The notes beneath the pieces are model-generated. The model did not search any database. It was not told where the DNA came from and saw only the letters and a program-made list of their open reading frames with translations. Of a stretch of DNA of 64,000 bases, positions 58,092 through 64,000 are shown piece by piece (positions within the stretch are counted from its first letter, which is position 1; every line of letters begins with the position of its first letter). The translations under genes were made by a program, and so were the position numbers. The stretch is from Cornus controversa. Taxonomy: Eukaryota; Streptophyta; Magnoliopsida; Cornales; Cornaceae. The stretch is from the NCBI GenBank assembly GCA_026545225.1, contig CM048849.1, forward strand, positions 56,129,836-56,193,835. Reading direction: 5' to 3'.

Positions 58092-58193
58092 TAGAATGAG
58101 AGAAGCTGGACATGGTCTCTGTGCTTCTCCTTCTATAAAACTACACTTACAGTTTACTATATATATATATATATATATATATAGCTAGCTACA
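58092..58193 (+). promoter_or_regulatory. Core promoter and 5' UTR of proline-rich protein gene 2
   Basis: TATAAAA at 58134-58140, preceded by GAGAGAAGCTGGACATGG and TCTCTGTGCTTCTCC, nearly identical to gene 1. The 5' UTR keeps GTTTACTATA...CTAGCTACAATG but carries an added (TA)n run at about 58157-58182 that gene 1 lacks, so TATA-to-ATG spacing is about 20 bp longer. Confidence 0.7.
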
Positions 58194-58544
58194 ATGATGT
58201 TGAAATTTATTTTCTTGTTTGGCTTGATTGTGGCTAGCAGTCTTGTATGTGACAGTGATGCTCGCAGACTCAAGGAAGGAAATGGAAACAGAGAAAAGGT
58301 GGAGGTGGTGTTTGGTAATTTGGACGATTTGCCACCTCAACCAGGCTCACCATATATCCCGGACACCCCAATAATTCCTCAATTTCCACCATCAACCCCA
58401 TTTCCTCAATTTCCATTCCCACCAATCCCTGGAATTCCCTCTTTCCCACTCCCCAATTTCCCTCCATTCCCTCCATTCAGTTTCCCTCCTATCACTATTC
58501 CGCCCATCCCTTTCCTCACACCACCAGGAGCACCTCCTGCGTAA
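58194..58544 (+). CDS. Small secreted proline-rich protein 2
   Basis: Single-exon gene of 116 codons, paralog of the gene at 49465. The signal peptide MMLKFIFLFGLIVASSLVCD matches the first gene's at most positions, with cleavage likely near DSDA|RR. A short charged segment (GNGNREKVEVV) follows, then a proline-rich domain. The PQIP motifs of gene 1 are replaced by PQFP, and the repeat array is shorter, which accounts for most of the 34-residue difference. The block IPGIPSFPLPNFPPFPPFSF aligns with the C-terminal block of gene 1, and the protein ends TPPGAPPA. The intact frame and conserved promoter suggest that both copies are live. Function unknown; extracellular or cell-wall location inferred. 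Confidence 0.85.
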   Translation: MMLKFIFLFGLIVASSLVCDSDARRLKEGNGNREKVEVVFGNLDDLPPQPGSPYIPDTPIIPQFPPSTPFPQFPFPPIPGIPSFPLPNFPPFPPFSFPPITIPPIPFLTPPGAPPA

Positions 58545-58950: not shown

Positions 58951-59640
58951 CAAAAATTCATCACAATTGACGATCTATTATTTGCGTGACTCTAATCATT
59001 AGTGTTTATATTAATGATGGACACATTAGTCAATAATAATAATAATAATAATACTATTCGATCTGAGTCTTTTATCATTTTTCAAGTGATATTCTAGTAG
59101 CTGATATAACGGAGTAAAATATTACAATACATGCACCATTAGTAAACTTTAACAGTGTTCCGATCAGGAAGAGGAAAAAGAAAATGATAGGATAATGGAT
59201 AATCGTGGAAGAAAAATGACAAAACTAAGACGAGAGGGGAAAAATTATTTCTGTGATCGAGCAAAAGGTGAAAAAAATATTCCACATGACATAGAAATAA
59301 GCAATAAGCGAGTAATAAAGAAATAAGCCCAAAGTCATTTTATTTGGGAATCCGAACTTTAATCAATGCTGGACTTGTATAATAGAGAAAAAAGAGAGGA
59401 TAACAAAGAAAAAATAAAGAAAAAGAAACGAAGATAGAGTAGTGCTAATGAACTAATTAATGATTAAAAAAAAGAGAAAAGAAAACATTGTTAACCTTTT
59501 TGTGTTTGAAAAAGATAATAGAGATAAAAAAAGAAAAAAGAAAATTACTCCGAATGATTTATTTTGTGAGCACTAACATCAAAATTGAAATTCACTTGTT
59601 ATATAAAAAAAAAAAAAAGACAAAATAGTTCAAAACCCTC
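58545..59640. other. Intergenic with microsatellites
   Basis: (CT)n followed by (TA)n at about 58903-58951 and (AAT)n at 59034-59052. The remainder is A-rich and shows no exon or complete element. Confidence 0.5.
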
Positions 59641-59793
59641 CTGTGATTTTCAAAAGGTATAATAAACTCATTTAAATTATATTTTGGACCATATATATCA
59701 CACCCTCGCCTTTATAAAAATGAGTAAATTACCCTATTTTGCACATATTCTCCTTTTCTATGATAATTTTATCCTTTATATTATTATAAAAAA

Positions 59794-61386
59794 GTACAAA
59801 TTACACTGACCTTCCCAGCAAATAGGCAAAATAACATATACCTTCCCTATGTTTCAAAAATAATACTGCACTCTCCTGTCAACGTACTTTTCGTAATACT
59901 GACTTCCCCTTTCAACTTTTTAGGTACGAAAATGACTGGTGTTATTGTATTTTTGACTTAAAAATTTCAAAACGCCCCTAGAATGTATGAAATGACTGAA
60001 ATACCCTCCTTTAATATATTATTTGTAGACAATTTTGCCCTTACTTAATCTATACATTATCTGTTCTACCTTACTGTTCAAGCACAAACAAAATACCTGC
60101 TTTTCAATGTACTTGTATATATTTGTATGTGCATATACACACACACACATGAAACTTGAATTTCTAATCTGTTCAACTCATCATTTTGTAACTTACAATA
60201 AATTATTATTATATAACCTTAAACTAAGGTTTTGCTTGCTAAAACTGAATTCTATGTCCATTATATGTAATTTCATTTTAATTCTATGATTAACCTTGAT
60301 ATTGAACTCGAACCCGATTCAAGCTTTGAGTACTGATATTAGCATTATAAAGTTGGCTAAATTTTAGGTGCATGGAAATCAATACTAATCCGATTTATAT
60401 TTTCATTTCTTAATACAACAGAAATAATGAACTGAAACAAACCTCACCGAATGCATTTGAAATAGTATATTAAAATCAAACCCAATGTAAAACATTTGAA
60501 AATTGTAATTGAAATCAAACCTAATTTTCTATATTTCAAATCAACTGCTATCAGACTCAATTTAGTGCAATCAATCTCAATTCATCACAATCTAACTATA
60601 ATCTAATTTGAATATAACTTACTATACACCCATCAAAACTTAACCCAACTTTTGTCCTTGTTCATCACTAGCAACCCAATCACAAAATCCAAACTTTTGC
60701 CACAAGACCCAATCTCAACCCGAAGACCAATCACAACCCCAAACCCATCAAACCCCATCATTGGCAACCCAATTGTAAAGCCAAACCCCATTGTTGCCCT
60801 TTTGGATCTTTATAGTGCAGATGAAGAACTGCGATTCATTAGTTCCCGAACTGGTGTTAGCCATGGAAAGAATTCCTGGACTAGTGTGCTTTTTGATGAA
60901 GTTCTCATCGGCGAACTTGTTGCTGTAGATGGACTCGCTGCTTGTGCCATTCTTGGCAATGAAACCGCCTCCCTGGTTGACCCGATTCTGGAGGTGGATG
61001 GGGAGTCGGTGGGTGGTGTTGGGGCAATGGTGGAGCTGGCGTTTTGGTGTGTGGCGACAGAAAAGGACGACTGGCCGGACATGTATGAAGGAGGTGGTGG
61101 CAGAGCTGAGGCAACCAGCCAGAAGCGAAGGAGATCTGTGTGTCGTGATGTTAGTAGAATCTTTCGATAAGGCAATGTCAATAGTTAATGTGATAAGGAT
61201 AATTTGGTCTTTTTACATAAAAAGAGTTTTTTAATTAAAGAATAATAAATCATACATTGGTAGATTTGTCATTTCACCATTTTAAGTATCCGACAACACT
61301 AACAGGGGAGCGCATTGTTGTTTTTGAAAACACAGTGAGGTATCTGTTATTTTGCCTATTTATAAGGGAGGTCAGTATAATTTATC
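59794..61386. mobile_element. Pack-MULE-like element (1,593 bp) with perfect 10-bp target duplication
   Basis: TTATAAAAAA flanks both sides exactly (59784-59793 and 61387-61396), the length expected for Mutator-like elements. The left end reads GTACAAATTACACTGACC and the reverse complement of the right end GATAAATTATACTGACC. Similarity continues for over 80 bp (CAAATAGGCAAAATAACATA against TAAATAGGCAAAATAACAGA, then TTTCAAAAA and CTCCTGT). No transposase is seen. The interior carries a more GC-rich open frame (60652-61170) that looks like captured gene sequence. It is inserted in the left arm of the foldback element and is therefore younger than it. Confidence 0.88.
60652..61170 (+). pseudogene. 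Gene fragment captured by the MULE, with a kinase-like C-terminal stretch
   Basis: Frame of 172 codons. Its first third is Pro/Ile-rich low complexity ([18 protein letters not shown]). Around residues 107-142 it reads [10 protein letters not shown], then [19 protein letters not shown]. This fits the end of plant receptor-like kinase domains (LVDP.L....., then V.ELAF.C....K..RP.M). The expected continuation MKEVVAEL is found in the next frame (about 61080-61105), indicating a shift, and the Arg of the RP motif is Trp here. ATP-binding and catalytic segments are absent. It is therefore a fragment, not a working kinase. Which receptor kinase it came from is not clear. Confidence 0.5.
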
Positions 61387-62169
61387 TTATAAAAAATATA
61401 GAATAATAGAGAAAAGAGAGGTTTTTTTTACATTAATAAAAAAAAGAGTTTTTTTCCTGAGAAAAAAAATTTTCGAAAAAAAAAAACTAAAAATGCACAA
61501 TTACATAATAAAAATTTCTAGATTTTTTTTTTGTTTTCCGAAAAATTTTCCATTAAAAAGAAGGGTTTTTTTTCAGGTAAAAAAACTAAATATACACAAT
61601 TACTTAATAAAAATTTTCATTTTTTTCTCGGAAATTGTTTTCGGAACTTTTTCCATTAGAAAGAGAGAGAATTTATGAAATTAAAATAAATTTTTGAAAA
61701 AAAAAAAAATCAATTTTTTTATTATTGTGCATATTTAGTTCTTTTTCCCTAAAACAATTTCCAGATTTTTTTTCTTGGAAATAAACACCTATTTTTTATT
61801 TTATTTTATTAAGGTAAATGAAAACTTAATATAAAAAACCCCTCTCTTTCTAAAGAAAAATTTTCCGAAACAATTTTTGGATAACAAAAAAAAATTCCAA
61901 TTTTTTTTATTATGTGCCAATTTTTTTCCTGAAAAAAAAACTACTCTTTTTTTTATTAAGGTAAAAAAAAACTATATATAAAAAACCCATTTATTCTCTA
62001 TTTTTCTTTATTTTTTATAATAATGAAAATGATAAAGTGGTCGTAGAAAATGAGAATATGTTCAAAATGAGTTACTTTGCTGACTTTTGCAAAGATGAGA
62101 GTGTGATATAGTCCAAAATACAGGATAAGGGAGTTTCTTGCACATTTTTAAATTTAGGCCTTTTGCCTA

Positions 62170-62184
62170 AAAATAAATAAATAA

Positions 62185-62330: not shown

Positions 62331-62385
62331 TGTATCTGGTGGTGCCGGTTAAATTTTCCTTATCCGTCAGAGAGAGAGAGAGAGG

Positions 62386-63462
62386 ATGGCATCACCAGCA
62401 GCTTTGCTTCCTTGCTTCTCCTCCTACCTAAATACGCATTTGCAGGTAATAAGCAAGAAGACTCTGGGTTTGGCCTCTTCCACACGAAGAACCAATTCTC
62501 TTCCTACAATCACTCGCTCAAGTCTCACTGACAATGCTCGCCTCCTTGAAGAAGCTGCCAAGCACACAGTAACATCCCCATTTCAACTAAAATTTCATGA
62601 TTCCTTCATTCAAACTGTTCTTCAATCTTATGTCCCTTTCTGCTTCTGTGTTTGATCAATATACTGGTCATTGACAGAAAAAGAAAGTTTTATTTTTTTA
62701 TTTTTTTCCTTGAAGAACTGAATATAATTAATCTTTTATTATCAGCATTGCCCTTTAAACATATTTTGTTTGATTGCGTACCCATTAATCTAATCCATTT
62801 TGAGGTGTGAATAATGTTAGTTCAGGGTAATTGTCGAACATGGGATATCTAGCTTAACTTTAAATCCTCATTTCAACTTGGTTATGCCCCAATGTGTGAA
62901 AATTTTAAATTATACATGCGTGAGCGTGCACAGACACATATATTTTGCCCTTATAGGAATTTGAACCCTCAACCTTCCACTTCGGAGGTAGAGTAGAGGC
63001 TTTGGGCTATAATCATTGGTGGTAATTATACGGGCATATATCCGATAATGAGATTTATTGTGTTTGTTTTTGTGGGAAATGGAATCTTGACATCATAAGC
63101 TACATCTGCGCTTGTATTTTTTTATTGTTTTAATTGATATTAGCATTGATTTGTTCATTTCTATTGAACATTTCTTGTTTATCTAGAAGACAACCGAGTA
63201 GCTTAGGGATTTGCTTTGAAATGATCATACTGGATTCAATAAAGGTTCAATTCCTTGAAATTCATTTCCTACAATTTTTATTCCTTCTTTGGAGTTGCTA
63301 AAATTTAGTGCTTTCAAATTTTTTTTCTTTCTAGGTGGATACATACATCAGAAGTGGCATGGTGGTTGGATTAGGATCTGGCCTTGCTTCTGGTATGGCA
63401 ATACAGTATTTGGGTCGACAACTTCGGGGTGGTGCTATACAAGATATAATAGGGATACCCAC
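62386..63462 (+). CDS. RPI4: Ribose-5-phosphate isomerase, RPI4-like, plastid-targeted (3' partial)
   Basis: Interconverts ribose-5-phosphate and ribulose-5-phosphate in the pentose phosphate and Calvin cycles. Exon 1 is 62386-62568 (61 codons) and exon 2 is 63335-63462, ending two bases into a codon before GTGGGT. The rest lies beyond the window; no third exon is seen to 64000. Residues 1 to about 45 are Ser/Thr/Leu-rich with few acids, as in a chloroplast transit peptide (MASPAALLPCFSSYL). The mature part starts near LLEEAAKHTVDTYIRSG, followed by the RpiA glycine loop MVVGLGSGLASGMAIQYLG. The canonical loop is GLGTGST; this Ser-for-Thr form is typical of the RPI4 branch, whose catalytic activity is less certain than that of RPI3. 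A GA repeat (62370-62384) precedes the ATG. Confidence 0.88.
62905..63040 (-). mobile_element. SINE-like relic in isomerase intron 1
   Basis: On the minus strand the order is TAGCCCAAAGCC (A-box region), CTCCGAAGTGGAAGG, GAGGGTTCAAATTC (B-box-like), then CAAAATATATGTGTCTGTGC. The layout resembles tRNA-derived SINEs with a GTGTGTG-type body such as the copies at 9330 and 21021. Weak without a clear tail. Confidence 0.4.
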
Positions 63463-64000
63463 GTGGGTCCATTTCTTTATCCCTTACCTCGCTCCAAAAA
63501 TGAGAAAAAAAAAAGCTTCTTTACAATTGTTATCACCTATGAAATAAGTTTGTCTGCTATTTTGAGCAACTATATTAAGAACCAAAATCCAAATTTTTAT
63601 ATTGATTTTACCCAGTTTGTGCGGGCTGTTGATTGTATTGTGTTTGATATTTTTCTGCTCTTGTAGCAAAACAAAAGTAACTAATTTTTATGATCATCTG
63701 TTGTATAGACTCTACTCCATCTGAGAATTTGTTAGTGTGTTGTATCAAAATCGTATGGGTCACTTCATGTTCCATGTTCTCTGTAGTATACGAGTCATGA
63801 ATGAGAACAAAGATATAACCTTTCCATGTTCTCCCCATTCTAGAGATGTTTTTCTTATGCACATTCTCTTCTCTGTCCAGTCCCTAAAGGATCAAGACAA
63901 CATGCAATTTTTATGTAGTCTTCTTCCTTTGGTTTCTTCCATCTGTCTCAGCTAGAATCTATGTGTCCATCAATCCTGTTTTGGTGTAATTTTAAGACTT
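63463..64000 (+). other. RPI4-like gene intron running off the window
   Basis: No third exon could be recognised. CTCTGTCCAG at about 63871-63880 looks like a splice acceptor, but what follows (TCCCTAAAGGATCAAG) does not resemble the next isomerase segment. Confidence 0.45.

What the first reader, a model, noticed from the sequence alone, without database searches (positions are those of the whole stretch)
59650..62140. A Pack-MULE nested inside a near-perfect foldback element
Seen directly: the inner 1,593-bp element has exact 10-bp flanks (TTATAAAAAA) and matching ends. The DNA on its two sides joins to form one arm of a palindrome whose other arm is 61690-62140. The order of insertion is therefore readable. 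A ~0.45-kb inverted arm pair can extrude or be transcribed as a hairpin, a possible source of small RNAs, though that is inference.
Basis: partly seen in the sequence, partly recalled or inferred. Interest (0 to 1): 0.72.

Follow-up and report, generated by a model that had tools for sequence, protein, structure and literature searches.

The report
Transposon nested inside another, carrying gene scraps
A plant jumping gene that carries pieces of two host genes landed inside an older hairpin-shaped jumping gene of the same superfamily; both kinds are well known, so this is a clear but ordinary example.

Summary
The nesting is real. It carries two oppositely oriented host-gene fragments, antisense cyclophilin (60815-60976) and sense receptor-kinase 3' end (60974-61110), whose matches overlap by 3 bases. 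Six aligned relatives span both fragments. It is a chimeric, multicopy Pack-MULE.

Target duplications with at most one mismatch were seen in 12 of 17 loci with both ends found; 8 more tried had one end unrecognised. All 69 aligned arms in 33 other loci lack the inner element at that site, so the insertion order holds. The arms are not near-perfect: 75% in the window, family median 84% (21 loci).

For each family one TIR-bounded element with MuDR-type transposase domains was found (L071 inner, L072 outer), so mobilisation in trans is the likely mechanism. The nest lies 218 bp upstream of an ATG of a ribose-5-phosphate-isomerase-like gene. Small-RNA production was not testable.

The parts
59619..62167 (.). 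Outer element: foldback-type non-autonomous MULE, split by the inner element (about 945 bp without it); family ends read roughly GGCAAAAGGGCCCAAAACC
   Evidence: Ends by comparison with family copies; 33 other loci read
59610..59618 (.). Possible left target duplication of the outer element (poly-A, degenerate; partner 62168-62176)
   Evidence: Best shifted 9-mers differ at 1 of 9, but poly-A makes this weak; unshifted they differ at 2 of 9 (read by eye)
59619..59793 (+). Left arm of the outer element, first part, up to the insertion point and including one copy of the target
59785..59793 (+). Target duplication TATAAAAAA, left copy
59794..61387 (+). Inner element: chimeric Pack-MULE, 1594 bp with a 9-bp duplication (1593 with 10)
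59794..59879 (+). Left TIR of the inner element
   Evidence: Aligned part 59798-59879, 67 of 81 columns identical to the right TIR
60815..60976 (-). Captured cyclophilin fragment (antisense to the element as drawn)
   Evidence: PF00160 E 6.5e-10; 129 of 161 bases identical to the cyclophilin reading frame in L061 and 127 of 162 to that in L064
60974..61110 (+). Captured C-terminal kinase-domain fragment of a WAK-associated receptor kinase gene (the label LRK10L-like is recalled, not from a call)
   Evidence: 109 of 133 aligned bases identical to L056, 4 gap positions; L056 ORF holds Pkinase and WAK_assoc
61141..61184 (+). Short stretch matching DNA downstream of the L056 stop codon (3' UTR-like)
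   Evidence: 84% over 44 bp, E 3e-7 in a small database; matched at 86% by L009 and L010, 43-52% in L011-L014
61302..61387 (-). Right TIR of the inner element
61388..61396 (+). Target duplication TATAAAAAA, right copy
61397..61640 (+). Left arm of the outer element, second part (approximate inner limit)
61700..62167 (-). Right arm of the outer element (approximate inner limit)

Best explanation
Two ordinary non-autonomous Mutator-like elements. A foldback MULE inserted first, upstream of a ribose-5-phosphate-isomerase-like gene. A chimeric Pack-MULE, whose family had earlier acquired pieces of a cyclophilin gene and a receptor-kinase gene, then inserted into its left arm and duplicated 9 bp. 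Shown: the anatomy, the order of the two insertions, the family copies, the gene fragments and their fusion. Inferred: each was moved by MuDR-type transposase supplied in trans by larger elements sharing its ends (such as L071 and L072 or their once-active kin), and the gene pieces came in by template switching at short shared sequence during repair. Neither needs a function for the host.
For: Empty site in 69 of 69 aligned arms. Inner TIR 67 of 81 columns. 9-bp or near-9-bp duplications in the six relatives L009-L014, read by eye. Both gene fragments aligned in all six, L014 lacking 37 of 161 cyclophilin bases. Pfam cyclophilin. Kinase donor candidate L056. Three-base overlap TGG at the fusion (60974-60976). 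L071: TIR-bounded, 9-bp duplication TTTATTAAT, MULE and MuDR DNA-binding domains. L072: outer-type TIRs, duplication TTTCTCTTT, MULE, MuDR DNA-binding and SWIM domains. Outer family duplications with at most 1 mismatch in 12 of 17 loci against 2.2% of 272 cross-locus pairings.
Against: The outer element's own duplication in the window is poly-A and unconvincing. Of 25 outer loci tried, 8 had one end not recognised and 5 of the remaining 17 showed 3 or more mismatches; 8 of the 33 loci were not tried. L071 and L072 have their transposase domains in separate open frames, so neither is shown to be active. The window's own outer arms match L072 only marginally (scores 44-53, where shuffles in another test reached 47); the link rests on family copies L030 and L038 (scores 74-85) and on the terminal sequence. 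The candidate gene donors are only about 80% identical, so the actual donors may be other family members. Of 120 listed inner-TIR places and 147 listed transposase places, none was a TIR enclosing a listed transposase (lists incomplete).
Confidence: 0.95

Rival explanations
1. One composite foldback element with a large natural spacer: the inner DNA is the loop or a module of the outer family, not a later insertion.
For: Foldback elements can have unequal arms and internal modules (general knowledge).
Against: No inner DNA at the site in 69 of 69 arms. The inner element has its own TIRs, target duplication and six relatives at other sites with other duplications.
Confidence: 0.01
2. The inner element is a MULE whose 'gene' pieces are MULE sequence and the protein matches are chance.
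For: Only about 300 bp match, at about 80%; the first Pfam scan, in other frames, gave nothing significant.
Against: PF00160 E 6.5e-10, above the curated cut-off; 129 of 161 ungapped DNA identity to a full cyclophilin reading frame in L061; kinase match to a 654-aa reading frame.
Confidence: 0.02
3. The nest acts as a regulatory locus: the outer arms or the antisense cyclophilin piece yield small RNAs that act on host genes or on the MULEs.
For: Joined outer arms fold at -246.5 against -144.9 (s.d. 7.1) kcal/mol for 20 shuffles. The best 21-mers differ from the cyclophilin genes of L061 and L064 at one base and from the L056 kinase at two.
Against: The longest exact run shared by the window's arms is 17 bases, and with the cyclophilin genes 14. 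The inner element now breaks the left arm. No expression data were on hand; Rfam found nothing in the window at gathering thresholds.
Confidence: 0.06

Closest known systems
Pack-MULEs of rice, tomato and Arabidopsis (e.g. Ferguson and Jiang 2012, PMC3310237: abstract and sections 1 and 3.1 read)
   Same: Non-autonomous MULE with inverted ends, 9-11 bp duplication and gene fragments; multicopy after capture
   Different: TIR family and captured genes were not compared with published ones. Two fragments in opposite orientations here. One relative, L013, has a second TIR copy about 280 bp outside its 5' end, recalling their tandem-TIR elements, but the 9-bp duplication flanks the inner TIR there
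MuTAnT foldback MULEs of Medicago truncatula (PMC4486113, passages read) and FARE of Arabidopsis (named in those passages; not read)
   Same: MULE composed mostly of long inverted arms forming a foldback, 9-bp duplications, cognate mudrA-type element. Twenty of the MuTAnT copies (218 identified) carried nested insertions or rearrangements
   Different: Larger (about 1 kb against 292 bp for their first element). Their preference for TA microsatellites was not formally tested here; the flanks printed are A/T-rich but mostly not TA runs
MuDR-type autonomous MULEs
   Same: L071 and L072 hold MULE transposase and MuDR DNA-binding domains between the respective TIRs
   Different: No transposase domain was found in the window's inner element; the outer element has no room for one in about 945 bp of arms

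Membership tests
Mutator-like element (inner) | Long terminal inverted repeats | tested here: met
   67 of 81 columns, about 90 bp; slightly under the 100-500 bp that PMC3310237 calls typical
Mutator-like element (inner) | 9-11 bp target site duplication | tested here: met
   TATAAAAAA, perhaps one base longer
Mutator-like element (inner) | Shares ends with an element encoding MuDR-type transposase | tested here: met
   L071: 156 of 194 and 157 of 193 columns over about 195 bp at the two ends, PF10551 and PF03108
Pack-MULE (inner) | Carries fragments of non-transposon host genes | tested here: met
   Cyclophilin and receptor kinase
Pack-MULE (inner) | Lacks transposase | tested here: met
   28 open frames of at least 30 aa overlap the region; 15 reading frames scanned against Pfam (4, 1, 10) gave no transposase. 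The remaining small frames were not scanned
Foldback-type MULE (outer) | Long inverted arms making up most of the element | tested here: met
   About 440-bp arms in about 945 bp; median arm identity 84% in the 21 loci measured of 33
Foldback-type MULE (outer) | 9-bp target duplication | tested here: met
   Family: 12 of 17 loci with both ends found; 8 more tried had one end unrecognised and 8 of the 33 were not tried. Window copy itself: degenerate poly-A, inconclusive
Foldback-type MULE (outer) | Shares ends with an element encoding MuDR-type transposase | tested here: met
   L072 by its terminal sequence and by family copies L030 and L038 (scores 74-85). Against the window arms themselves only marginal: 70-75% over 110-248 columns, scores 44-53
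Small-RNA-producing hairpin locus | Small RNAs mapping to the arms | not testable with these tools
   No expression data on hand

The most novel reading that the evidence does not exclude
The Pack-MULE family, with an antisense cyclophilin piece joined to a sense kinase piece, is transcribed from its TIRs and gives RNA that dampens cyclophilin genes in trans, while the foldback arms around this copy supply double-stranded RNA that feeds silencing of the outer MULE family or of the adjacent isomerase gene.
Probability: 0.04. Interest if true: 0.5.

Novelty: new member of a known kind. Interest (0 to 1): 0.2.

Why it matters
It is a clean worked example: order of insertion, target duplication, empty sites, two-gene capture with a readable fusion point and candidate transposase-bearing partners can all be read in one genome. 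It also sits 218 bp upstream of a gene's start codon, and Pack-MULEs are said to give small RNAs or contribute to 5' UTRs of host genes (PMC8277862, passage). It does not change what is known of MULEs.

Tried and rejected
Rejected: composite single element; 'near-perfect' palindrome; chance gene matches. Tried without result: Pfam on the sense and other frames of the capture (best E 0.14) and on ten further frames (best E 0.074, below the cut-off). tRNA and Rfam scans of the window found nothing. Pfam on two neighbouring exons and one upstream frame found nothing; the isomerase came. Literature searches listed Pack-MULE, multi-TIR MULE and foldback MULE papers; three were opened in part. These searches did not ask for these particular TIR families, so I make no claim that they are undescribed. 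The species was not identified.

Full report
WHERE. The window is C5:56129836-56193835 of a 772-Mb genome in 61 contigs, with 10 contigs of 48-129 Mb. Gene content and repeats point to a plant (inference); the species was not identified.

OBSERVATION. The sequence at 59784-59793 and 61387-61396 reads TTATAAAAAA. Between the two lies an element whose ends are inverted repeats, 67 of 81 aligned columns identical with 2 gaps. Joining the DNA outside the two sites gives an arm that pairs with the right arm. The best outer stretch matches at 187 of 232 aligned columns, the whole arms at 312 of 414 with 55 gaps. The local alignment score is 131 against at most 47 in 100 dinucleotide shuffles. So the structure is far above chance but not near-perfect.

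LIMITS. Duplications of the six relatives, read by eye, are 9 bp or close to it: exact TAAAATATA (L011) and TATTAGATA (L013), one mismatch in L010 and L014, poly-A slippage in L009, 9 or 10 bases in L012. The last element base is C in 4 of these 6 (T in L012, A in L014). The window copy is therefore best read as 59794-61387 with the 9-bp duplication TATAAAAAA and a last base T. A 10-bp duplication fits the empty-site sequence as well. The outer element extends to 59619 and 62167 by comparison with family ends.

ORDER OF INSERTION. In 33 loci fetched from the rows listed (259 matches reported, not all listed), 69 arms aligned to a probe made of the two flanks with one target copy. All 69 were uninterrupted, with the 24-base site spanning 19-29 bases, commonly TATTATAAAAAATAAAGAA. 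The arms are not all independent: each locus gives up to four, and L041 and L043 look like copies of each other. Conversely the inner family has copies at other sites with other duplications.

INNER ELEMENT. Seven copies (window and L009-L014) align at 81-88%. Two subgroups exist: window, L009 and L010 share a 3' stretch (61141-61184) that L011-L014 do not. Twelve further loci carry partial matches to it. On the minus strand 60815-60976 encodes part of a cyclophilin (PF00160, E 6.5e-10) and aligns without gaps to cyclophilin reading frames in L061 (129 of 161) and L064 (127 of 162). L061 also has an 81-bp stretch matching another part of the inner element, not followed up. 60974-61110 on the plus strand aligns to the C-terminal kinase part of a receptor-kinase gene in L056 (109 of 133 aligned, 4 gap positions), whose 654-aa frame has Pkinase and WAK_assoc domains. 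The two matches overlap by TGG, consistent with template switching at microhomology. PMC8277862 (passages read) reports microhomology, median 2 bp, in at least one breakpoint of 190 (67.6%) animal Pack-TIRs and leaves open whether the same models apply to plants. All six relatives align across both fragments, although L014 lacks 37 of 161 cyclophilin bases, so the fusion predates their spread. In 3 of the 7 copies the best match in the searched plus-strand frame contains stops, and the L009 copy is split over several frames, so no protein role is suggested. No transposase domain was found in 15 reading frames scanned.

OUTER ELEMENT. The family is foldback in form: 21 loci measured of 33 give arm identities 74.5-89.3%, median 84%; in several of the 21 the alignment ran on into the flanks, which lowers the figure. 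Of 25 loci tried for duplications, 8 had an end not recognised. Of the other 17, 12 had 9-mers with at most one mismatch, against 2.2% of 272 cross-locus pairings, and 5 had three or more. So the outer element, too, belongs to a MULE family. Its own duplication in the window is lost in poly-A.

PARTNERS. The inner TIR pattern occurs 452 times in the genome with up to 2 mismatches (pattern read backwards: 0) and the outer pattern 74 times (backwards: 0). From facing TIR pairs in the printed rows (a part of the 452, all of the 74) I picked one large pair each. L071 (6.5 kb, duplication TTTATTAAT) holds MULE and MuDR DNA-binding domains. L072 (5.6 kb, duplication TTTCTCTTT) holds MULE, MuDR DNA-binding and SWIM domains. 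L071 shares about 195 bp at both ends with the window's inner element at about 80%. L072 matches family copies L030 and L038 well (scores 74-85) but the window's own outer arms only marginally (44-53). They are candidates for the source, or for relatives of the source, of transposase. They were not shown to be intact or active.

SURROUNDINGS. The outer element ends 218 bp before an ATG at 62386 in an open frame. The frame at 63335-63544 matches ribose-5-phosphate isomerase (6zxt_A, E 2.6e-8), although Pfam gave nothing for it. That both belong to one gene is inferred.

FUNCTION. The joined arms fold at -246.5 kcal/mol against -144.9 (s.d. 7.1, 20 shuffles), but the present locus is interrupted and its longest exact arm match is 17 bases. 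Best 21-mers differ from the cyclophilin genes by one base and from the kinase by two. Small-RNA effects are thus neither shown nor excluded.

VERDICT. A well-preserved nest of two MULEs, the inner one a chimeric Pack-MULE. Known kinds: Pack-MULEs (PMC3310237, abstract and sections 1 and 3.1 read) and foldback MULEs with nested insertions (PMC4486113, passages read).

Noticed in passing
L013 (G000:C1:127067500-127071200), 926-1045 and 1203 onward: This inner-family copy has a second 5' TIR copy about 280 bp outside the first, while the 9-bp duplication flanks the inner one; resembles but does not match published tandem-TIR MULEs.
   Followed up: partly
window 62353-63547: Downstream gene resembling ribose-5-phosphate isomerase; the MULE nest lies 218 bp upstream of its presumed first ATG at 62386.
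   Followed up: partly
G000:C7:42033567-42039167 and C7:44381836-44387430: Two facing outer-TIR pairs with nearly the same 5.6-kb spacing on one chromosome, perhaps copies of one transposase-bearing MULE; only the first was read (L072).
   Followed up: partly
window 58185-58544: 119-codon frame with a hydrophobic, signal-peptide-like start (judged by eye) and a proline-rich tail; no Pfam match.
   Followed up: no
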